64,000 bases of DNA. It comes from Balneola sp. Lineage in GTDB: Bacteria; Bacteroidota; Rhodothermia; Balneolales; Balneolaceae. Location: the NCBI GenBank assembly GCA_003712055.1, contig RHLJ01000001.1:186001-250000 (forward strand), in the 5' to 3' direction. Position numbers and translations under genes: made by a program. The number at the start of each line of letters is the position of its first letter. Positions within the stretch are counted from its first letter, which is position 1. A model generated the notes under the pieces. The model saw nothing but the letters and a program-made list of their open reading frames with translations, was not told where the DNA came from and searched no databases. Below, in pieces: positions 3,179 through 13,858 of the stretch.

Positions 3179-3388
3179 AAACTCCTTAGACGTCAATAAA
3201 GCTTTTTTTATAGCGTCAGATATTACAATATTTATTTAATAGTTTTCTCACTCGTTATCATTAGATTGTAACATCATCTACTGAACAGACTCATTAAACA
3301 GGCAATAAGAAATTCTAATTTTCTTTCTTTCAAGTATTTGTGAACTTTGTTCAATAACAACAAAAACAAAAAAACCTAGGAGATCATC

Positions 3389-3835
3389 ATGGGTCAACAA
3401 CAATTACTTCTTGTAATTCTAGTAACAATAATCGTTGGTATCGCTACTGTAGTTGCTATCAACACTTTTTCAAGTTCTGCAGATTCTGCAAACCTTGATG
3501 CTGTAAGAAATGACGTGGCTTCTATCGCTGCTGCTGCTCAAGGCTATTATATTAAGCCTTCTATGCTTGGTGGTGGTGGAAATGACTTTACTTCACTTTC
3601 TTTCAACACTATCGCTTTTGCTGCTGATTCTGTAGCTGACGATGGAGCTACTGCTAGAAACACAAATGGTGTTTACGTAATTAGTGGTGGTAATGCTACT
3701 CAGTTTACTGTTACTGCACACCCAACTAGCCGAATTACAGGTACTCCAACCCTTACTTCTACTGCTAGTGAAGGTGGAGCAGAGTTGGTTGCTGTTATTA
3801 CCGAGAGCAATGTTTCTTGGACAGATAACAACTAA
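3389..3835 (+). CDS. Pilin-like protein A, probable major subunit of the T4P-like machine
   Basis: 148 residues. It starts MGQQQLLLVILVTIIVG, a hydrophobic N-terminal helix (about residues 6-27) like a pilin stalk, followed by a polar head of about 120 residues. No long positively charged leader and no GFTLIE-type cleavage site are present; if Gly2 is the cleavage point the mature protein would start with Gln and lack Glu5. A central motif, YYIKPSMLGGGGNDFT, recurs in the next gene. The head is rich in Ala, Ser and Thr with many GCT codons, which hints at strong expression. AGGAG at 3378-3382 sits 6 bases before the ATG. A hairpin terminator follows the gene. The role as pilus/pseudopilus subunit is inferred from topology and from the PilC/B/T/M/Q genes downstream. 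Confidence 0.7.
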   Translation: MGQQQLLLVILVTIIVGIATVVAINTFSSSADSANLDAVRNDVASIAAAAQGYYIKPSMLGGGGNDFTSLSFNTIAFAADSVADDGATARNTNGVYVISGGNATQFTVTAHPTSRITGTPTLTSTASEGGAELVAVITESNVSWTDNN

Positions 3836-3853
3836 GACCGCTTTTGTCTTAAC

Positions 3854-3886
3854 AAAAAAGCTTTCCACATTATGGAAAGCTTTTTT
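3854..3886 (+). terminator. Intrinsic terminator/attenuator between the two pilin-like genes
   Basis: Arms AAAAAAGCTTTCCA (3854-3867) and TGGAAAGCTTTTTT (3873-3886) enclose a 5-base loop, and the T-run continues to about 3889. It lies 18 bases after the first pilin-like gene and 32 bases before the second. Partial termination here would give much more transcript of the first subunit than of the machine genes that follow. Confidence 0.85.
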
Positions 3887-3917
3887 TTTATCTCAGTAAA
3901 AATTTTGGTCGACAGAG

Positions 3918-4286
3918 ATGGGACAACAACAATTACTCCTTATCATATTAGTTACGATCATTATAGGACTAGGAACCGTTTTTGGACTAGTCTTATTTGA
4001 AAATTTTAGAGACGAGTCCGTCAAAGACATGATCAAACAGGATATGATGGAAGCCGCAAACTATGGACAGGCTTACTATCGTAGACCTAGAGCAATGGGA
4101 GGTGGAAGCGAAGATTACACCAACATTGATATGAATATATTATCATTAGATACTCTTACTGCCATTACTAGATTTTCAATCACTGAAACTTCGACCGAAT
4201 ATTTCAAAATCACTGCTGATCCTTTAAGTAGTCTTGAGGATTTTTCTATAATTGTGTACAGTGATAGGGTTGAATGGGAAGAATAG
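3918..4286 (+). CDS. Pilin-like protein B, paralogue of the preceding gene
   Basis: 122 residues. The first 17 residues match protein A at 15 positions (MGQQQLLLIILVTIIIG), and the head contains YYRRPRAMGGGSEDYT, the counterpart of the YY-x-[KR]P-x-x-[LM]GGG motif in A. The rest of the head differs and is acidic (DRVEWEE at the end). One hydrophobic N-terminal helix spans about 6-26. It could be a minor or tip pilin, or an alternative major subunit. No classical prepilin cleavage site is seen. It follows the attenuator and precedes pilC by 23 bases. Only a weak purine stretch precedes the ATG. Confidence 0.65.
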   Translation: MGQQQLLLIILVTIIIGLGTVFGLVLFENFRDESVKDMIKQDMMEAANYGQAYYRRPRAMGGGSEDYTNIDMNILSLDTLTAITRFSITETSTEYFKITADPLSSLEDFSIIVYSDRVEWEE

Positions 4287-4309
4287 GTTATTACTAATTA
4301 AAGTATCAA

Positions 4310-5647
4310 ATGGCACAGTTTAGGTTAAAAGCAGTTTCTAAGACCGGCAAGTCTATTCAGACTGAATTTGAGGCCGACAACAAAAAGGAGGCTCAGTTAA
4401 AAGTCGATCGACTTTCAAAAACAAATGGATTAACAATTCAAGCCTTAGATCAAAAACATCTTTTTCTCTATAAAGTTAAAAGGCCGGGTAAAAAACCTCT
4501 CAATGGAGAACAGGAAGCTTATAACAAAGAAGAATTAGAACGTGCCCTGGTAAAACTTGGGTACCAGGTTGTAAGTATCAATAAAAAGCTATTCACTTTT
4601 AAGGGCGGTGTTCCAATGGGAGAAGTAGTTTCTTTCATAAGAATGTCGGCCGATCTACTGAAGCAACAGCTTACTTTCGATGAAATCCTAAATCTTCTAA
4701 TTGAAGATTCTACTAATAAAAGGATGAAGGAGGTTGTTAAAGAAATACAGAAAGATCTTAAAGATGGTAAAGAAGGGACTCAAGTATATGGTAAGCATGA
4801 AGATATTTTTGGGAAATTCGCAGCTTATATGTTAAGTGTTGCTTCTACTTCTGGGAATATGGCACTTGTTTTTGATAGCACCGCTAAATTTCTTGAGCGT
4901 GACGCAGAGTTTAAAAAGAATTTAAAAAGATCGTTAATGATGCCAGCAGTGACTGTACTGGCTGTGATCGGTGTAGTTCTATTTTATGTAGGCTATATTT
5001 TTCCTTCTACTGCAGAGCTTTTTGTGGAGATGAATATTGCACTGCCACCTATGACAAAATCTACTCTTGATTTTAGTTATTGGTTAGCTGATTACTGGGT
5101 TTTTGTTTTATTGGCATTTGTACTACCAATTACCGGGTTTATATTTTTCGCAAGAACTGTCCGAGGTAAATTAATTATCGATAAGTATATAATTCACTTA
5201 CCGGTAATGGGAGACCTATTACATAAGACTAGTATCGAGATCTTCTCAAGAGTGTTCTACACACTTTATAGCGGTTCTGGACAAAATATTGAGGTAATTC
5301 GTGTTGCTGCCGAAGCATGTCGAAATAAATACATAGAGAAACAGATCAAAGAAGTTGCTATCAAAATGATGTTAAAAGATGGTGCTGGCCTTATTGAGTC
5401 AATGGAAGCCACAGGTGTTTTCCCTCACACCGCAATTAGTAGATTTAGGTTGGGAGCTGAATCGGGCGCACTGCGAGATAATGCGAAACAACTTGCTGAG
5501 TATTATGAAATCCAGACTACATATAAAATGCAGTCAGTAATTGATACTATAAACTTATTCATTAACTTATTCATCATGATAGCCCTAATTGCTATCACAG
5601 TTGTTTCTTCTGAATCAGCAACAATTAACCCAAGTAGTTCGCAATAA
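4310..5647 (+). CDS. pilC: Type IV pilus/type II secretion inner-membrane platform protein (PilC/GspF family)
   Basis: 445 residues, somewhat longer than the usual ~400. Two T2SSF helical domains (about 105-210 and 305-410) alternate with three membrane segments, about 211-231, 262-281 and 412-432, the family topology. The C-terminal half has the typical LHKTSIEIFSRVFYTLYSGSG and RLGAESGALRDNAKQLAEYY segments. The extra length is at the N-terminus, where the short GspF entry motif seems present twice (1-48 and 50-96). PilC-type proteins sit in the inner membrane and couple the cytoplasmic ATPases to pilin insertion or extraction. It is followed after 13 bases by pilB. Confidence 0.92.
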   Translation: MAQFRLKAVSKTGKSIQTEFEADNKKEAQLKVDRLSKTNGLTIQALDQKHLFLYKVKRPGKKPLNGEQEAYNKEELERALVKLGYQVVSINKKLFTFKGGVPMGEVVSFIRMSADLLKQQLTFDEILNLLIEDSTNKRMKEVVKEIQKDLKDGKEGTQVYGKHEDIFGKFAAYMLSVASTSGNMALVFDSTAKFLERDAEFKKNLKRSLMMPAVTVLAVIGVVLFYVGYIFPSTAELFVEMNIALPPMTKSTLDFSYWLADYWVFVLLAFVLPITGFIFFARTVRGKLIIDKYIIHLPVMGDLLHKTSIEIFSRVFYTLYSGSGQNIEVIRVAAEACRNKYIEKQIKEVAIKMMLKDGAGLIESMEATGVFPHTAISRFRLGAESGALRDNAKQLAEYYEIQTTYKMQSVIDTINLFINLFIMIALIAITVVSSESATINPSSSQ

Positions 5648-5660
5648 TTAATCCAGAAGG

Positions 5661-7436
5661 ATGGGCAAAATAAATATCCGAAGACACATCGGTGATATTT
5701 TGGTTAGTAAAGGAGTAGTCTCAGATGATCAACTCCAGGAAGCCCTTAATATCCTAGAGGAAGAGCCTCCAAATAGCTCACGTAGGCTAGGTCAAATATT
5801 GTATCAGGAGGTTGGGTTAAACAGGCATATAGTAATGAAAGAAATTTCAAAGGTATATGCTTTTAGAGAAGTATTACCTGATGCCGATGTCGTTCCTGAT
5901 GATATTATTGAGCATATAAAAAAGAACGTTGAGAACCTCCCGGAAGAAATCATTGATGAATTAGTTCATCATAAAGCTATTCCTTACCAAAGGACAAATG
6001 GGGCATTAACTATCGCTGCAGCAGACCCTTCCGACCCCAATATTCAACCCATACTCAACCGACTCACTTTTAAGAAAACAGAACTTGTTTATTGCAATTA
6101 TGAACTTGTTGACCACATCCTTTCAAAAGTATATGAGCAGAAAAATGAGTTCCTGGACCTACTTGAAGAGATTGATTACGAAGAAACAGATATAGATGCT
6201 GGCGATGAAGAAATTGATGAAGAAGAGATTGATGCTGAAATCAACCAGAGTATGCTTAACTCACTGGTTGAAGGGATGCTTGTTGAGTCTGTTCGACAAG
6301 GGGTAAGTGATTTACATATTATTCCAAGCGGTCCAACATCTACTGATATTCGATTCAGAATTGATGGAAAACTTCAGCTTTGGTATCAACAAAAAAATGT
6401 AAAGCCAGAAGCTATCTCTGCCGTAATTAAAGATAAAACCAGAAATGTAGACCGTTTTGAGCGCGATTCTTCTCAGGATGGTTTTATCCAACGTCAAATT
6501 GATGGGTACAATATTCGGTACAGGGTTTCTATTATGCCTATTGTTGGAAATCAATATGATCGGAAATTTGAGTCTATTGTAATCCGAATTCTTGACGATA
6601 GAAAAGTAATACGTGACCTGGATTTACTTGGACTTCAAAAAGTGGCAAAAGACAATTTTACCAAGTCCATACAAAAACCCTCAGGTATTGTAATCATAAC
6701 AGGTCCAACAGGTAGCGGTAAATCAACTACTCTTGTAGCCGCTCTTTATTATGTAATTGATCCTACTAAGAACGTACTGACAGTTGAAGAACCTGTAGAG
6801 TATATCATCGATGGAGCTCGACAGCTCAAAATAAGTCCTTCAATGTCCTTTGATCAAAGTATTCGTGGTATTCTGCGTCATGACCCTGACATTGTTTTGG
6901 TAGGTGAGATTCGAGACTTAAAAACTGCAGAAATTGCTATTAAACTCGCTAATACAGGTCACTTAACCTTTTCAACATTACATACCAATGATGCTCCAAG
7001 TGCAGTTTCTCGTCTATTTAAAATGGGAGTGGAACCATTTCTTATTGCCAACGCAGTTAATCTTGTAATGGCACAGCGTTTAATTAGACGATTATGCAAA
7101 GAATGTAAAGAAGTATATACTCCTCATCCGGAAACAGCGAAAGGAATTGGTTTTACAGATGAAGAGATTGAGACAACTACATTCTATAAGGCTGTAGGTT
7201 GTGAAAAGTGCAGTGAAACCGGATATAAAGGACGTTCCGCAATCCATGAAGCTCTTTACTTCTCAAAGGAAATTAAACAGATGGTATTGGATGCTGGTGG
7301 AGATATTGATGAAGGTGCAATTAAAGATTTGGCGATTAGCCAAGGTATGTTAACCCTGCGAGGATCAGGAAGGGAACGTATCAAAGAAGGGATATCTACA
7401 ATTGAAGAAATTGTAGCAGCAACAATTGAAGATTAA
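5661..7436 (+). CDS. pilB: Assembly ATPase of the PilB/GspE family
   Basis: 591 residues. An N-terminal MshEN-like domain (about 1-160) is followed by an acidic linker (about 168-195) and a T2SSE ATPase domain. Visible motifs are Walker A GPTGSGKST (348-356), Asp box VEEP (375-378), Walker B DPDIVLVGEIRD (408-419) and His box HLTFSTLHT (434-442). A zinc-type tetracysteine module, C479/C482 and C514/C517, is characteristic of GspE/PilB and absent from PilT. MshEN domains can bind cyclic di-GMP; whether this one does is not established. It should drive polymerisation of the pilin-like subunits from the cytoplasmic face. Confidence 0.95.
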   Translation: MGKINIRRHIGDILVSKGVVSDDQLQEALNILEEEPPNSSRRLGQILYQEVGLNRHIVMKEISKVYAFREVLPDADVVPDDIIEHIKKNVENLPEEIIDELVHHKAIPYQRTNGALTIAAADPSDPNIQPILNRLTFKKTELVYCNYELVDHILSKVYEQKNEFLDLLEEIDYEETDIDAGDEEIDEEEIDAEINQSMLNSLVEGMLVESVRQGVSDLHIIPSGPTSTDIRFRIDGKLQLWYQQKNVKPEAISAVIKDKTRNVDRFERDSSQDGFIQRQIDGYNIRYRVSIMPIVGNQYDRKFESIVIRILDDRKVIRDLDLLGLQKVAKDNFTKSIQKPSGIVIITGPTGSGKSTTLVAALYYVIDPTKNVLTVEEPVEYIIDGARQLKISPSMSFDQSIRGILRHDPDIVLVGEIRDLKTAEIAIKLANTGHLTFSTLHTNDAPSAVSRLFKMGVEPFLIANAVNLVMAQRLIRRLCKECKEVYTPHPETAKGIGFTDEEIETTTFYKAVGCEKCSETGYKGRSAIHEALYFSKEIKQMVLDAGGDIDEGAIKDLAISQGMLTLRGSGRERIKEGISTIEEIVAATIED

Positions 7437-7505
7437 ATGATCTTAGGAGTTGTTTTTATGCTTTATTTTAAACCATATTAAGATGCTTTAGGAAAAGAGG
7501 ATACT

Positions 7506-8009
7506 ATGAGTACAGGAAATGATGGTACGGGTGATTTATTATCCAATCATGTGAAAAAGTTTTTGAAGGAACCCCCTTTACTGTTGAAGAATTTCCACTA
7601 CGAAGATGTGTTAGAATTTCTTGAACTTGGAATCGAAGAAAGGTTCAATGCTGATGACGTAATTCTGAATGAATCAGAGTATGTAAATTCAGCATATTTA
7701 GTAGCAGAAGGCAAAGTAGCTATCTGGAAAGATAATATTCAATTGGCTACTCTTTCGGATGGCAATTTTCTAGGCGAGGCTTTTTTATTTAGTAAAAATA
7801 ATAGAATGGCAAAGGTAACTGCTGCCGGAGGTTGTGTTCTTTTACGCTATGAACGATACGATGCTTTAAGTTTTTTCAGAAAAAAACCTGAAAAATTATT
7901 CAACATTTTTACTAAAAATATCATCGAAATACAGCAACGTAAAATCAGCAATATGAATGTTCAGTTATTAAATCTAAAAAAAAGATTATTGAACGACTCA
8001 AACTGGTAA
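7506..8009 (+). CDS. Single-domain cyclic-nucleotide-binding protein
   Basis: 167 residues with a CRP/cAMP-type beta-roll (about 30-135) and no DNA-binding helix-turn-helix. The phosphate-binding cassette is recognisable at 88-101, with Gly90, Glu91 and Arg100 in the positions of the CRP ligand-binding Glu and Arg, the loop being one residue shorter than in CRP. A charged C-terminal helix (about 135-163) may mediate dimerisation or partner binding. It lies 69 bases after pilB and 83 before the PilT-like gene, on the same strand. That makes a regulatory or motor-adapter role plausible, but this is inference. Some family members bind no nucleotide. Confidence 0.75.
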   Translation: MSTGNDGTGDLLSNHVKKFLKEPPLLLKNFHYEDVLEFLELGIEERFNADDVILNESEYVNSAYLVAEGKVAIWKDNIQLATLSDGNFLGEAFLFSKNNRMAKVTAAGGCVLLRYERYDALSFFRKKPEKLFNIFTKNIIEIQQRKISNMNVQLLNLKKRLLNDSNW

Positions 8010-8092
8010 TTGCCAGGCATTTATTTTCAGATTTTTCGTAACAAAACACTATTAGTTTAATCTATTATGTCCATCACAATGATGGCTAATAC

Positions 8093-9334
8093 ATGGCGGC
8101 AATAGATTTAGATAAAATTGCGGAGCTTACTAAGCCCTTAGTGCAGCGAATTCCTCAGACTGCACGTGGAATCGATTTGCACAAAAGAATTGGAGATCTA
8201 CTTGAAGAATCTGATATAAGTTTACGTGTCGATTTAAAGGCTATTCTAGACTCCTTTTTATTAAATATGATCAAAATCGACGCATCAGATATCGATATGG
8301 GAGGAGATGGGTGTGCTGGAAAGGTGTGGTACCGGGTATTTGGAAATAAAAGTCCCTTAAAGGTTTCTAAAAAATTTACACTACTCGAAACGGATATCTT
8401 ACTTCATAATGCTCTATTAAGTACACAAAGAGATCGTTTATTAGAAGATAAAAATCTTGATTTTTCGTATTCCATTAACTTAGTGGATGGTTCAAAGCAA
8501 CGTTTTCGTGCAGATATCTATTTCGATCTGGACCACCTGGCATTAAATATGCGAAAGATCGATAACACTATACGTCCCTTTAAATCTCTAGGGGTACATG
8601 CTGAGGTTGCGAAGTCGGTAAGTCTAAAATACTATAAATACGGGCTCTCTTTAATAACAGGAATTACCGGATCTGGAAAATCCTCAACTTTAGATACAAT
8701 AATTGACGCTAATAATCGAACAGTAGACTCTCATATTGTGATTATTGCTTCTCCAGTCGAATTAATCCACGAACCGATAAGATCGGTAGTAAGACATAGA
8801 GAAGTAGGAGCGGATGTACTTTCCTTTAAAGACGGAGCTATTCAAGCGCTTAGACAAGATCCTGATATCATTGTGATTGGTGAGTTAAGAGACCCAGAAA
8901 CCATCATGACTGCACTTGAAATCACAGATTCAGGTCATAAGACTTTCGGAACTCTTCATACTTCTTCTGCTATGGAGAGTATCGAGCGGATTTTAGGTGA
9001 AATGCCTGCAGAAGAACAAAACAGGGTTCGAACTCGATTGGCGGATGTGCTTACTTGCGTAATTAGTCAAAAACTGGTTCCTAGCCTCGATGGTAAGAGA
9101 GTATTAGCAAAAGAAGTTCTTCTCGCAAATGCTTCTGTAAGGGCAGCAATAAGAAATAATAATATTGGTGAAATCTATCAGATGCTTATGGAAGGCAGGG
9201 AGCGTGGAATGAATACAATGGAACAGGATCTGAAGAGATTATTTGAAGAAGGTAAGATTTCTAAAGAAACTGCCTTAAATTATTCAAACAATAAAACTAA
9301 AATGTTGCAACTTCTAAGTGAAGTTTCCTATTAG
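8093..9334 (+). CDS. pilT: PilT/PilU-like ATPase of the pilus machine
   Basis: 413 residues. A diverged N-terminal PAS-like region (about 45-160) is followed by a RecA-type ATPase core: Walker A GITGSGKSS (190-198), Walker B DPDIIVIGELRD (256-267) with catalytic Glu264, and His box HKTFGTLHT (282-290). The C-terminal region has an equivalent of the PilT AIRNLIRE helix (SVRAAIRNNNIGEI), then MNTMEQDLKRLFEEGKIS, typical of PilT. It has no tetracysteine module, unlike PilB. The usual Asp box EDPIE reads ASPVE (219-223), losing its first two acidic residues. The expected role is retraction or depolymerisation; reduced or altered activity is possible. Confidence 0.88.
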   Translation: MAAIDLDKIAELTKPLVQRIPQTARGIDLHKRIGDLLEESDISLRVDLKAILDSFLLNMIKIDASDIDMGGDGCAGKVWYRVFGNKSPLKVSKKFTLLETDILLHNALLSTQRDRLLEDKNLDFSYSINLVDGSKQRFRADIYFDLDHLALNMRKIDNTIRPFKSLGVHAEVAKSVSLKYYKYGLSLITGITGSGKSSTLDTIIDANNRTVDSHIVIIASPVELIHEPIRSVVRHREVGADVLSFKDGAIQALRQDPDIIVIGELRDPETIMTALEITDSGHKTFGTLHTSSAMESIERILGEMPAEEQNRVRTRLADVLTCVISQKLVPSLDGKRVLAKEVLLANASVRAAIRNNNIGEIYQMLMEGRERGMNTMEQDLKRLFEEGKISKETALNYSNNKTKMLQLLSEVSY

Positions 9335-9339
9335 ATTAG

Positions 9340-11094
9340 ATGGCTAAAGGAAAAGAATATATCGGGATTTCTTTAGATGGTGATGCACTAAAAGTAGTTG
9401 TATTAGGCATTTCTGGTAAAAAACTTACCCTTAAACGCCTAGATAAATATACCCTCCTTAAAGCAATTGAAAGTGATACCGTACAGAATATTCAAGATGA
9501 TGTATTTGGAGACCTTGATGATGCTTTGACTGATGATTCTGTATTTGATCTGGATCTGGAAGCTTCTCTTTCACAAGATACTATTGAAGATGAGTTAGAC
9601 TCATTAGACCTTGATAGTGATGTATTAGGCGATATTGATGATGATATCGATCTCGAATTAAGTGAACTGGAGCAAGGAGAAGACGAGCTTGTAGACGTGG
9701 ATATGGTAGATGAAACAGAAGTACCTACTTCTAATGAGATGTTGCTCTACAATATCCTTTCAAGTATTGACCCAAAAAAAATTGCTTTAGGGTTAAACAT
9801 ACCTGCTGGTGTTGCTATCTATCAAATCCTGAAGGATGTCAATTTTGAAGAGGTCAAAAAGAAGGATTTACAAATTATTATAGATGATCGTCTTGAATCC
9901 TTACATGGCTCGCCAAAAGCAGAAGACTTTTACTCATATGGTATTAGAGATGATGGAGCTCTATTAATCTCTTCTATAGAAGAAGAGCCCAAGCTATTAC
10001 AGCTTCTAAATAGAACCCTTTCATTATACCGGGGAAAACTTACTGTAGAAGAAATACTTCCAGATGAAGCTGTTGTTCTTGGGCTAGTTAGAGCAAACTA
10101 TGAGCTTGAAAATGAAGCTATAAGTTGTGTAATCCAGTTTTCTGAGCAAACTTGCAGAGTAATTTTCATGAAAGGGCCAAGGGTATGGCTTGTTTCTCCA
10201 GTAATTACAGAGGGAACTCGATCAAAAAAATTCCTCAACACGGTTTTTAGTAAAATCTTATTCCAATTAGATACAGGAGAAGTTCCAAACCTGGATAGAC
10301 TTATCATTTGCAACAACTCGCTTGGAGAAGAAGCTATTTCTTTCTTTCAGGATAGATTTCCCGATGTAGAAGTAAGTAGCTTTACTTTTTCGGACAATTT
10401 CTTGGATCCTGGTGAATATACAAGCGAAACCCTATCGTCTTTCACTACCGCTATTGGAATGGCATGGGCCACCTCACCCTTTGAGAAAAAGAATCTCCCG
10501 GATATTTCATTTATTCCAAAATATGTACGGGATAGGCAAAAGATATTCAAACTAGAGTGGCATGGATTTATTCTTCTGTTTATGATCATGATTTCTTTCC
10601 CTTTATTAGATAGTGTCAGACAATCTGCAAATACAGAAATTGATTCTTTAAGAAATGAAGTGTCTCTACTTGACACTCAAATTAATTCATTCAATTCAAC
10701 AGTTAGGAACTATAACCAAATCAGTTCACAGCTTACTCAAATTCAGGATAAACTTGATCTGTTAAATACCCTCTCAGAAAATTCCATTACCTGGTCTACC
10801 AATTTTGACATTATAAACTCAGGAATAGATGAGATTAATTCTGTCTGGTTTACAAGTATTTCAACAACTGATGAACCTAATACTCTTGAGATTCAAGGAA
10901 TTTCAAGAAATAGAAGCAGTATTCCTTTAGTAGCAGAAATGTTTTCTAATGCTACTTTAATAAGTGTTTCTACTATCCAAATCAGATCAGCAGATGTTTA
11001 TGCATTTAGTTACCAAATAGAAGAAATAGTATCCGATTTAAGTAGATATACACCGGATAACTTACAAGGGCTGGAGGACCTAACAGGCAATTAA
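9340..11094 (+). CDS. PilM-PilN fusion: actin-like cytoplasmic domain, acidic linker, membrane anchor and PilN domain
   Basis: 584 residues. It opens with an actin/FtsA-like start (YIGISLDGDALKVVVL), as in PilM, interrupted at about 48-130 by a highly acidic Asp/Glu/Leu-rich insertion. The actin-like fold resumes at about 133-380 (NMLLYN-type start, SCVIQFSEQTCRVIFM, TTAIGMAWA). A single membrane helix lies at about 408-424. The remainder (425-584), a coiled coil plus a small alpha/beta domain, matches PilN/GspL layout. PilM and PilN are normally separate proteins joined by PilN's short cytoplasmic tail, so this gene covalently joins the alignment-complex ring to its cytoplasmic partner. It starts 5 bases after pilT and overlaps the next gene by one base. 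Confidence 0.8.
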   Translation: MAKGKEYIGISLDGDALKVVVLGISGKKLTLKRLDKYTLLKAIESDTVQNIQDDVFGDLDDALTDDSVFDLDLEASLSQDTIEDELDSLDLDSDVLGDIDDDIDLELSELEQGEDELVDVDMVDETEVPTSNEMLLYNILSSIDPKKIALGLNIPAGVAIYQILKDVNFEEVKKKDLQIIIDDRLESLHGSPKAEDFYSYGIRDDGALLISSIEEEPKLLQLLNRTLSLYRGKLTVEEILPDEAVVLGLVRANYELENEAISCVIQFSEQTCRVIFMKGPRVWLVSPVITEGTRSKKFLNTVFSKILFQLDTGEVPNLDRLIICNNSLGEEAISFFQDRFPDVEVSSFTFSDNFLDPGEYTSETLSSFTTAIGMAWATSPFEKKNLPDISFIPKYVRDRQKIFKLEWHGFILLFMIMISFPLLDSVRQSANTEIDSLRNEVSLLDTQINSFNSTVRNYNQISSQLTQIQDKLDLLNTLSENSITWSTNFDIINSGIDEINSVWFTSISTTDEPNTLEIQGISRNRSSIPLVAEMFSNATLISVSTIQIRSADVYAFSYQIEEIVSDLSRYTPDNLQGLEDLTGN

Positions 11095-11957
11095 TGTCTT
11101 ACGCGATAAGAAATACCATTATTCTTCTTGTGACTTTATTTCTAATTGTTGGTTTAGGACTTGGTTACAATAATTTCTTTCAGGAAAGTTTAATTGAAGA
11201 TCTACAGTTAGAAATTACCAGTAAACAACAGGATCTAAACTCAAAGCAAAACATTAATAACGAGTTTTCTGAACTTAACGATCGTTATCAAAGTGCTTTA
11301 GGAATTATCTCTAACTATGATAAGATGTTGTTTACATCAAATAAGCCGGATGATGTTTACGATTTCATGAATGAGATCAATAAGGATGGGGGGAGCAGGC
11401 TTTTCTTTGACTTTGTTTATTCCGACTCTATCCCAAATAATCAATATGGTGTTATACGCTCAAACATTTCGGGATATAGCGACTATGATGCGCTTGTATC
11501 ATTCATTAATAAAATTGAGAATAGCCAGCTTTTAAATAAAGTGAGTAATGTTACCATATCGCCCGGAAGATCCGAAGATGGCTTAAACTCAGTAAATTTT
11601 GCATTTAATCTTGAAAGCTATTATCAAAAAACTCAACTCTTTGATTCACTTTCAACGGACTATAGAATCGTAGAGAATAACGAAATATCATCATTCAACC
11701 CGTTTTATCCCCTAATTCAGAACTCAATACCACCTAATTCTGATGGATTAGTAAATGCGGAGGCTTCCAGAATTGTAGGTATTGCTGGAAATCGAATCTT
11801 TGTTATTGGACAAGATGGCAAAATCATTTCCCTTAAAGTTGGTGACCGAGTTTACCTAGGTTATCTTTCTGCTATTGACCTAAATAATAAAACGGCTACA
11901 TTTAACTTAAATAAAGGCGGCATTGAAGAAGTCGTTACCTTGGAGGTAGTACGATGA
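11094..11957 (+). CDS. PilO-like inner-membrane protein with a C-terminal PilP-like beta domain
   Basis: 287 residues. One membrane helix (about 8-24) is followed by a coiled coil (28-65) and a ferredoxin-like periplasmic domain (about 85-180), the architecture of PilO/GspM. After a linker, residues about 225-287 form a small beta-rich domain (VGIAGNRIFVIGQDGKIIS, then LKVGDRVYLGYLSAID) like the HR/PilP domain that touches the secretin. I infer a PilO-PilP fusion that links the inner-membrane ring to the secretin. The start overlaps the stop of the previous gene (TAATG), and its own stop overlaps the next start (ATGA), with GGAGG upstream of that start: strong translational coupling. Confidence 0.7.
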   Translation: MSYAIRNTIILLVTLFLIVGLGLGYNNFFQESLIEDLQLEITSKQQDLNSKQNINNEFSELNDRYQSALGIISNYDKMLFTSNKPDDVYDFMNEINKDGGSRLFFDFVYSDSIPNNQYGVIRSNISGYSDYDALVSFINKIENSQLLNKVSNVTISPGRSEDGLNSVNFAFNLESYYQKTQLFDSLSTDYRIVENNEISSFNPFYPLIQNSIPPNSDGLVNAEASRIVGIAGNRIFVIGQDGKIISLKVGDRVYLGYLSAIDLNNKTATFNLNKGGIEEVVTLEVVR

Positions 11958-13858
11958 AAAAAATGGCAATGAAGTTTTACCAAATTACATTTTATAGTAT
12001 TTGTATAGGTATTTGGTTAATGCCATTTACCACAGCTGATGTATTTGCTCAAGATGAGTATCCTCGCGAATACACTGATCCAAATCAAATAATCGCTTTT
12101 GATAAATCCACCCCATATGTAGAAGCTATGGAGGTTATTAACCAGTTCTTACAGGAGTATCAGAACAAGTTTATTATTGATCAATCAGGAGCGGGGGGGA
12201 CGATAGGAGTAAATTTACCAGCTATGCATTGGGAGGATGCCTTAAAGTTTATCCTTCGTTTAAAAAATCTTGGAACAAGAGAATTTAGCGATTATGTTGA
12301 AATTGTACCTTTGAGTGAACTTGAAGCTGAAGCAAATGCTGCTGCTTCAACAAATCCTGCACAATCTGTAAATCCCAATGCAGCCGCTGCGGACGATTAT
12401 GATCTAAGCACCCGTGAAATCAGGATTAATGCTACATTCTTTGAAGGGAACAAAAGAGCCCTCCAGGAAATCGGGATTGATTGGTCAACCTTAACTTCAA
12501 ATGTACCTGATAATATAAATGACATTGTAACAGGAGAAGGAATTGACCCAGATCAAGGGGTTCCACAAGGCACCGATTTTACTGATCAATTCGTTTCTGT
12601 TAACTCATTTAATGCCTCAGGAGTATCTCAAAATGTATTCAACGCACTGGTAAACTTAGGAGAAATTGGACCAGGAGTTAGAGTACAAGCTCTTTTTAGT
12701 GCCTTTGAAGCGGATAACCTTGGTGAAGTAATTGCAAGTCCATCAGTAAAAGTAATTGATGGACAAGAGGGTAGAATACAAGTAGGACAAGATTTTTCTA
12801 TTAAGCAGCGTGATATAGCTGGGAATGTTACCGACCAATTCTTTAGTACCGGAACCATTCTAACTGCTACGCCAAGGTTAATAGAGGTAAATGATACTAC
12901 ATTCATCCATATTGAGCTAAACGTTGAACGATCTTCCGCTTTACCAGATGCGGTAAGTACGATCATTAATAAGCAGACAGCCTCTACACAAGCCTTACTA
13001 TTAGACGGAGAAGCCACCTCAATAGCAGGATTATATAGAACTGAGGAAAATACTGTGAGAAGAGGTATACCTATTCTAAAAGATCTTCCACCTTGGTTTT
13101 TCGGTTTAAGATATCTTTTTGGATATAACTCTAATGACTACGTCGAGAATGAGTTAATAATTATTGTACAGGCTAAACTCGAAGAATCACTAGAAGAGCG
13201 TCTTACTCGACGATCTTTTGAGTCTCAGCGAGAAGTTCTTGACAGAACAAGGGAAGAACATCGAAGTGCATTAGACAAAGTCTTTGATAACCCTTTTACA
13301 ACTACCCAGGATACATCAGAAGTTCAGACTGAAAATATACCTGAACAAAAAGAAGAGGATCTGATGACTGAAACTAATTCTGATTCGGTAGATAATAGAC
13401 CAGAGATGAAGCCAGAAGAGTTAGATACTACTCCAGTTATTGTTGAGAATCCATCAGAGGAAACTTCGGAAGAACTTACCGAAGAACAGAAAGAATTAGC
13501 TCAGGAACTCAGTCTACCTGTAGATAATCCCGAATTAATGGTAGTCGTTCCAAGAGCCTTCAGTCTGGATGAATACCTAACTCAAAAAGAGAGTGGTACT
13601 GAGATTAATGATGAATCCTCTATAAATATGAGATTTTTTGTTATCGGCGGCTCATTCATAGTTCAAAATAACGCTGATAGGTTTCATCAAGGACTCGTTG
13701 ATTTGGGATATGAAGCAAAGATTCTATTTCATCCTGAATCAAGATTTAACTTTGTAGCTTACAAGGGATTTTCAAGTTTTGATGAAGCTGTGAGCTATTT
13801 GCGAGAAGCTAGATCCGAACTAAATTCCGAGGCTTGGTTGTTTACAAAACCCAATTAG
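11954..13858 (+). CDS. pilQ: Outer-membrane secretin (PilQ/GspD family) with C-terminal SPOR domain
   Basis: 634 residues with an N-terminal signal peptide ending about FAQ (33). An N0/STN-like domain (45-120) and a short N-domain (153-180) precede the secretin core (about 240-410). In the core are GEVIASPSVKVIDGQEGRIQ, TGTILTATPRLIEVND and the family signature near the channel, GIPILKDLPPWFFGLRYLFG (371-390). A long acidic, proline-containing linker (about 415-545) leads to a SPOR domain at about 558-634 (FFVIGGSF at its start, AWLFTKP at its end). SPOR domains bind denuded peptidoglycan glycans. It is the last gene of the pilus cluster and forms the outer-membrane exit channel. Confidence 0.92.
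   Translation: MKKMAMKFYQITFYSICIGIWLMPFTTADVFAQDEYPREYTDPNQIIAFDKSTPYVEAMEVINQFLQEYQNKFIIDQSGAGGTIGVNLPAMHWEDALKFILRLKNLGTREFSDYVEIVPLSELEAEANAAASTNPAQSVNPNAAAADDYDLSTREIRINATFFEGNKRALQEIGIDWSTLTSNVPDNINDIVTGEGIDPDQGVPQGTDFTDQFVSVNSFNASGVSQNVFNALVNLGEIGPGVRVQALFSAFEADNLGEVIASPSVKVIDGQEGRIQVGQDFSIKQRDIAGNVTDQFFSTGTILTATPRLIEVNDTTFIHIELNVERSSALPDAVSTIINKQTASTQALLLDGEATSIAGLYRTEENTVRRGIPILKDLPPWFFGLRYLFGYNSNDYVENELIIIVQAKLEESLEERLTRRSFESQREVLDRTREEHRSALDKVFDNPFTTTQDTSEVQTENIPEQKEEDLMTETNSDSVDNRPEMKPEELDTTPVIVENPSEETSEELTEEQKELAQELSLPVDNPELMVVVPRAFSLDEYLTQKESGTEINDESSINMRFFVIGGSFIVQNNADRFHQGLVDLGYEAKILFHPESRFNFVAYKGFSSFDEAVSYLREARSELNSEAWLFTKPN

What the first reader, a model, noticed from the sequence alone, without database searches (positions are those of the whole stretch)
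3389..13858. Compact, fused type IV pilus/T2SS-like machine with atypical subunits
Nine plus-strand genes encode two pilin-like paralogues, PilC, PilB, a cNMP-binding domain, a PilT-like ATPase, PilM-PilN, PilO-PilP and a SPOR-bearing secretin. The set is a whole envelope-spanning machine, yet it differs from textbook T4P in subunit signal, in the fusions and in having no prepilin peptidase, minor pilins or PilY1 in the cluster. It may be an undescribed filament or secretion system of Balneolota-like bacteria.
Basis: partly seen in the sequence, partly recalled or inferred. Interest (0 to 1): 0.88.

Follow-up and report, generated by a model that had tools for sequence, protein, structure and literature searches.

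The report
Type IV pilus with leaderless pilins
This locus encodes a type IV pilus-like surface filament machine whose subunits are made without the leader peptide that pilins are thought to need, and most genomes that carry it lack the enzyme that removes that leader, so a step held to be universal in this family seems to have been lost in a large group of bacteria.

Summary
The nine-gene cluster at 3389-13858 is real and closely related to the type IVa pilus. PilB, PilC, PilT, PilN, PilO and the secretin all match known families, and the predicted pilin fold matches solved type IV pilins (Z up to 8.9).

The surprise is the subunits. Both pilins start MGQQQLLL..., directly at the mature-pilin helix; an in-frame stop lies within a few codons upstream, here and in nearly all relatives, so there is no class III leader. 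Pilin genes of this family occur in 137 of 392 sampled genomes of the phylum. Only 15 of those 137 have an A24 prepilin peptidase over the cut-off, the same 11% as in genomes without the pilins. Canonical prepilins were found in all 6 tested genomes with the peptidase and, over the cut-off, in none of 14 without it. A dispersed minor-pilin trio (PilV/PilW/PilX-like; the PilW-like one has a GspJ/XcpW fold) is leaderless too.

Gene order is conserved in Ignavibacteria and KSB1. A Melioribacter roseus genome paper noted pilB, C, T and Q but 'no pilA, no pilD'.

Best reading: a retractable type IV pilus that does not depend on a prepilin peptidase. No filament has been seen. The window's own genome does hold one A24 enzyme, encoded with a separate T2SS-like system.

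The parts
3377..3388 (+). In-frame TAG stop and AGGAG ribosome-binding site just before pilin 1; leaves no room for a leader peptide
   Evidence: Sequence read directly; same stop within a few codons in ~40 related genes and in 89 of 106 others within 7 codons
3389..3835 (+). Major pilin candidate, 148 aa, MGQQQLLLVILVTIIVGIATVVAIN, leaderless
   Evidence: AlphaFold2 pLDDT 92, N-helix 3-55 plus beta sheet; the top 20 VIA-align entries are pilins or pilin fusions, best PilA4 6xxd Z 8.9; homologues in 39 of 59 relatives
3854..3886 (+). Terminator-like hairpin with T run after pilin 1, as expected for a highly expressed major subunit upstream of low-expressed machine genes (inference)
   Evidence: number of such sites in the region is not above chance, so only a candidate
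3918..4286 (+). Second, probably minor pilin, 122 aa, MGQQQLLLIILVTIIIGLG, leaderless
   Evidence: Aligned with pilin 1 family; in-frame stop 7 codons upstream
4310..5647 (+). PilC/GspF-like inner-membrane platform protein
   Evidence: PF00482 E 5.6e-29; TIGR02120 157 bits, NF052607 PilC 144 bits
5661..7436 (+). PilB-like assembly ATPase with N-terminal MshEN-type domain
   Evidence: TIGR02538 437 bits over GspE 405 bits; best solved relative Geobacter PilB 6olj 329 bits
7506..8009 (+). Cyclic-nucleotide-binding-domain protein, candidate regulator; seen only in order-level relatives
   Evidence: PF00027 E 1.6e-11; order-level clusters
8093..9334 (+). PilT-family retraction ATPase
   Evidence: TIGR01420 E 4e-91, 306 bits against cut-off 319
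9340..11094 (+). PilM-like plus PilN fusion
   Evidence: Profile of relatives hits PilN 3jc8_Na E 5.4e-11; 10 of 21 members hit NF045709 PilM-like
11094..11957 (+). PilO with a C-terminal extension read as PilP-like
   Evidence: Profile of relatives hits PilO 3jc8_Oa E 1.8e-5; PF04350 PilO in 6 of 19 members, best E 0.0036; PilP part by eye only
11954..13858 (+). PilQ-type secretin with family-specific C-terminal extension (SPOR-like by eye, about 13610-13855)
   Evidence: PF00263 E 1.3e-25; profile best hits PilQ 3jc8_Qa E 2e-24; SPOR not confirmed

Best explanation
The locus encodes a type IVa-like, probably retractable pilus whose pilins are made in their final N-terminal form. Shown: the pilin gene starts at the mature hydrophobic helix (MGQQQ), with no leader and no acidic residue in the first 24 positions; the minor pilins are leaderless as well; the machine genes are PilB, PilC, PilT, PilMN, PilO and PilQ homologues in conserved order; most genomes with the system have no detectable A24 prepilin peptidase. 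Inferred: the ribosome/SRP/Sec route inserts the pilin as an N-in signal anchor; no leader is cleaved, at most the initiator Met is removed by methionine aminopeptidase because residue 2 is Gly; the neutral Gln3-4-5 cap takes the place of the cleaved N-terminus and Glu5; PilB and PilC extract pilins from the membrane into a helical filament primed by the PilV/W/X-like trio, PilMN-PilO(P) aligns it with the PilQ gate, and PilT retracts it; the MshEN domain of PilB and the cNMP-binding protein regulate it. The likely use is adhesion or surface motility.
For: Start codons fixed by in-frame stops: (about 40 genes), 89 of 106 more, trios. Protein-level constraint: 23 of the first 27 positions of 26 major pilins are invariant while codons vary. 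Pilin fold; PilW-like minor pilin matches GspJ/XcpW/TTHA1219 at Z 10.2-11.6, next entry 3.4. Peptidase: MGQQQ pilins in 137 of 392 genomes; A24 over cut-off in 15 of these and in 28 of the 255 others (Fisher p 1.0); A24 over cut-off in 4 of 26 named genomes; own A24 enzyme as query finds no intact homologue in 14 tested A24-negative genomes. Canonical prepilins over cut-off in 6 of 6 genomes with A24, 0 of 14 without (p 2.6e-5). Synteny. Independent literature: M. roseus has pilT, Q, B, C but no pilA or pilD found (PMC3534657).
Against: No filament, protein or motility has been observed; everything is sequence and predicted structure. A non-A24 enzyme could trim the N-terminus and would not be seen by these searches. 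Some genomes, including the window's own, do have an A24 enzyme. Foldseek alone gave no E-value under 0.001 for the pilin; the fold evidence rests on VIA-align and the model. The sequence profile of the pilins hits solved pilins only weakly (E 0.06). The PilB clade separation has moderate support (88/81). Counting MGQQQ positions used sequences chosen for MGQQQ, so invariance of residues 1-5 is partly by construction.
Confidence: 0.77

Rival explanations
1. The pilins are processed after all: residues M-G act as a two-residue leader and a peptidase cuts between Gly2 and Gln3 (the new N-terminal Gln could cyclise). In genomes with A24 that enzyme could do it; elsewhere an unknown, non-A24 enzyme would.
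For: Gly precedes the hydrophobic helix as in prepilins, and Gly2 is invariant in A1. Own genome has an A24 enzyme.
Against: A24 occurs no more often in genomes with these pilins than in those without. Reported leaders are 6-26 residues (PMC4471445). The V- and W-like minor pilins do not share the Gly2 start. No alternative peptidase was found, though none was systematically sought.
Confidence: 0.12
2. It is a type II-like secretion pseudopilus rather than a surface pilus.
For: PilC scores slightly better with GspF (157) than PilC models (144); the minor trio resembles GspI/J/K; Bacteroidota have a T2SS-like system (PMC5553014).
Against: A PilT retraction ATPase is part of the conserved cluster; PilB and secretin prefer the T4P models; the same genome has a separate T2SS-like system with canonical prepilin and A24 enzyme.
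Confidence: 0.1
3. An ordinary type IVa pilus with a mis-called start codon: a leader exists upstream.
For: None found beyond the general frequency of wrong start calls.
Against: In-frame stops directly upstream of MGQQQ in nearly all of about 150 genes examined and a ribosome site at the right distance.
Confidence: 0.01

Closest known systems
Type IVa pilus (Myxococcus xanthus / Geobacter PilABCTMNOPQ)
   Same: PilB, PilC, PilT, PilN, PilO, PilQ homologues; best solved relatives are T4aP components; pilin fold
   Different: No class III leader, no Glu5, no A24 peptidase in most hosts, PilM-PilN fused, minor pilins leaderless and away from the cluster
Bacteroidota T2SS-like system of Cytophaga hutchinsonii (CHU_3191-3202; PMC5553014)
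   Same: Phylum-level neighbour; PilM/N/O/P-like inner-membrane parts
   Different: Has Peptidase_A24 (CHU_3197) and pseudopilins recognised by the canonical N-terminal helix; the window genome's second operon (L008), with its own prepilin and A24 gene, resembles that kind of system
Akkermansia Amuc_1098-1102 type IV pilus proteins
   Same: PilM-like half matches NF045709 Amuc_1101 family; secretin weakly matches NF042912 Amuc_1098
   Different: Not compared further here; no claim about their pilins
Unassigned 'generic' type IV filament systems of Denise, Abby and Rocha 2019 (PMC6668835)
   Same: ATPase, platform, secretin of the superfamily
   Different: Their generic model required a major pilin found by profiles; the passages read do not mention leaderless pilins
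Melioribacter roseus 'incomplete' T4P genes (PMC3534657)
   Same: Probably the same system: pilT, Q, B, C present and pilA, pilD reported missing; M. roseus bins carry the cluster (L126, L138)
   Different: Authors did not recognise the pilin and judged the set incomplete

Membership tests
Type IV filament superfamily | Traffic ATPase plus PilC/GspF platform protein | tested here: met
Type IV filament superfamily | Subunits with the lollipop pilin fold | tested here: met
   Model pLDDT 92; top 20 entries pilins or pilin fusions, Z 4.0-8.9; minor pilin matches GspJ/XcpW Z above 10
Type IV filament superfamily | Class III signal peptide: 6-26 residue leader ending in Gly (PMC4471445) | tested here: not met
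   Translation starts at MGQQQ; in-frame stops upstream
Type IV filament superfamily | Glu at mature position 5 (nearly invariant in bacteria) | tested here: not met
   No acidic residue in positions 1-24 of 170 MGQQQ pilins; rare variants MGNRE and MGQKE exist
Type IV filament superfamily | Dedicated prepilin peptidase (A24) | tested here: not met
   None in the cluster; over cut-off in only 15 of 137 genomes with the pilins. Own genome has one in another operon
Type IVa pilus | PilT retraction ATPase | tested here: met
   TIGR01420 306 bits, slightly below curated cut-off 319; syntenic in distant relatives
Type IVa pilus | PilM, PilN, PilO, PilP alignment complex | tested here: inconclusive
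   M-like, N and O supported; P not confirmed
Type IVa pilus | PilQ secretin | tested here: met
Type IVa pilus | PilY1/PilC tip adhesin | not tested
   No search left; a T9SS-sorted adhesin lies next to a minor-pilin trio
Type IVa pilus | Phylogenetic placement inside the T4aP clade | tested here: inconclusive
   PilBs of the system fall on one side of a branch with 88/81 support, against few and partly long-branched references
Type II secretion system | GspC/L/M set, GspE-type ATPase, no PilT | tested here: not met
   PilT present, PilB model preferred over GspE

The most novel reading that the evidence does not exclude
An ancient branch of the type IV filament superfamily, spread through Bacteroidota in the wide sense and neighbouring phyla, builds pili entirely from leaderless pilins (one or two major plus a PilV/W/X-like trio) with no prepilin processing at all, so leader cleavage is not a universal requirement for type IV filament assembly.
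Probability: 0.7. Interest if true: 0.9.

Novelty: new variant of a known kind. Interest (0 to 1): 0.82.

Why it matters
The class III leader and its A24 peptidase are used as the defining marks of this superfamily and as the search key for finding it. A widespread system that lacks both means surveys have missed or misread pili in hundreds of species, explains why genomes such as Melioribacter roseus looked like they had a pilus machine without a pilin or pilD, and gives a natural test of what leader cleavage, N-methylation and Glu5 are needed for in filament assembly.

Tried and rejected
Mis-annotated start codons: rejected by in-frame stops. Own A24 enzyme as the pilins' processor: rejected as a general need because relatives, including a single-contig genome of the same genus (G002), lack it while their canonical prepilins are absent too. 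Cytophaga T2SS identity: rejected on A24 and canonical pseudopilins. Foldseek alone on the pilin was not significant, VIA-align resolved it. Pfam and NCBIfam give no significant pilin match for the MGQQQ proteins. No match to the pilins in phage or plasmid collections. Promoter scan uninformative. Literature searches for leaderless or peptidase-independent pilins found nothing relevant; subscription papers are not in that library. Balneolota and Rhodothermus searches: nothing on this system.

Full report
What is there. Family scans identify PilC/GspF, PilB, a cNMP-binding protein, a PilT-family ATPase and a PilQ-type secretin. Single-sequence scans fail on the fused proteins, but profiles of relatives hit the PilN and PilO chains of the M. 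xanthus type IVa pilus machine model (3jc8), and 10 of 21 members of the first fusion match a PilM-like family. The SPOR domain and the PilP half remain unconfirmed.

The subunits. Pilin 1 (148 aa) and pilin 2 (122 aa) both start MGQQQLLL, and a third, orphan copy lies on another contig. Upstream of pilin 1 the reading frame is TAG GAG ATC ATC ATG: the stop sits inside the ribosome-binding site. The same was seen in about 40 genes of relatives, and 89 of 106 further MGQQQ genes have an in-frame stop within seven codons. So there is no room for a leader. Across 26 major pilins, 23 of the first 27 residues are invariant while codons vary, so the N-terminus is under selection as protein. No acidic residue occurs in positions 1-24 of 170 MGQQQ pilins (the first five positions are invariant partly because sequences were picked by that motif), whereas bacterial pilins almost always have Glu5 (PMC4471445). 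Rare variants MGNRE and MGQKE put Glu at position 5, a hint, no more, that position 5 of the unprocessed chain stands for Glu5.

They are pilins. AlphaFold2 gives a confident model (pLDDT 92): one helix 3-55 and a beta sheet. VIA-align's top 20 entries are type IV pilins or pilin fusions, best Thermus PilA4 at Z 8.9, and most full-length pilins (PilA4, FimA, PAK) align so that model residue 1 to 4 meets mature residue 1. Foldseek alone was not significant, and a sequence profile hits solved pilins only weakly.

No prepilin peptidase. In 392 genomes of the phylum at least 90% complete, the pilin family occurs in 137 and an A24 peptidase over the curated cut-off in 43. The overlap is 15: 11% of genomes with the pilins and 11% of those without, Fisher p 1.0. 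The negatives include single-contig genomes, one in the window's own genus (G002). In 20 genomes checked for the canonical prepilin motif PF07963, it was over the cut-off in all 6 with A24 and in none of the 14 without (p 2.6e-5). Searching those 14 with the window genome's own A24 enzyme found no intact homologue; one genome (G167) has a fragment with three stops. Among 26 named genomes with the system, 4 have A24. The window's own genome has one A24 gene, in an operon with a canonical prepilin, another PilMN fusion, PilO, PilP and secretin: a separate T2SS-like system.

Minor pilins. In some relatives three further leaderless proteins with an N-terminal helix lie between pilB and pilT. Profiles of these find dispersed PilV/PilW/PilX-like trios in the other genomes tested: the X-like one in 13 of 14, the V-like one in 14 of 14, three trios in the window's genome. 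The model of the W-like member matches GspJ, XcpW, EpsJ and TTHA1219 at Z 10.2-11.6, with the next entry at 3.4. X-like members often carry DUF4900 or DUF7305. So the whole pilin set found is leaderless.

Spread and order. The order pilin(s)-PilC-PilB-PilT-PilMN-PilOP-PilQ is kept in the family, the order and other classes and in Ignavibacteria and KSB1 genomes, with partial clusters on Kryptonia and Calditrichota contigs. A scan of 84,980 species' genomes found 478 matching stretches, of which 79 loci were returned. The cNMP gene and the long secretin extension are lineage-specific additions. PilBs of the system form one side of a branch with moderate support, apart from the few reference PilB and GspE proteins used.

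Literature. The M. roseus genome paper reports pilT, pilQ, pilB and pilC but neither pilA nor pilD (PMC3534657), which fits an unrecognised pilin and a truly absent peptidase; the type strain itself was not searched here. The Cytophaga T2SS-like system has A24 and ordinary pseudopilins (PMC5553014). No description of leaderless pilins was found in the open library; absence there is not proof.

How it probably works. Shown: anatomy, predicted fold, absence of leader, absence of A24 in most hosts. Inferred: insertion as a signal anchor, possible removal of Met only, assembly by PilB/PilC from a PilV/W/X-like primer, passage through PilQ, retraction by PilT, regulation through MshEN and cNMP domains, use in adhesion or surface movement. 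The strongest remaining rival is trimming by an unknown enzyme.

Noticed in passing
L111:430-10275 (own genome, contig C1 near 617.9-627.8 kb): A very large T9SS-sorted adhesin (2518-aa open frame; Invasin_D3 and Por_Secre_tail domains) ends just before the first of two leaderless minor-pilin trios, and small secreted proteins, two with weak DUF4402 matches, follow. Large and small secreted neighbours also occur in L112 and L115. Candidate tip or surface partners of the pilus.
   Followed up: partly
L007 and L008 (own genome, contigs C6 and C5): The genome's second, canonical system (prepilin, A24, secretin on C5; ATPase on C6) is flanked on both contigs by several related proteins ending in a conserved 'PDYVFHADYEL..LPEVPSA' region, possibly its cargo.
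   Followed up: no
L071:14733-16178: A polytopic membrane protein resembling O-antigen ligases (by eye) lies between the two pilin genes of genome G008; it could be a pilin glycosylase.
   Followed up: no
G167 contig C1:3597772-3598116: A degenerate A24-like stretch with three stop codons (E 6e-4) in a genome with only leaderless pilins; it may be a relic of a lost peptidase or chance.
   Followed up: no
L081:7208-9043 and L190 (second PilB): Some genomes carry a second PilB-like ATPase just upstream of the pilin gene; the two copies seen group together on a long branch.
   Followed up: no
L080:2637-3017, L084:587-949, L087:18622-18993: A single-domain response regulator follows pilQ in several distant relatives, suggesting linked regulation.
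   Followed up: no
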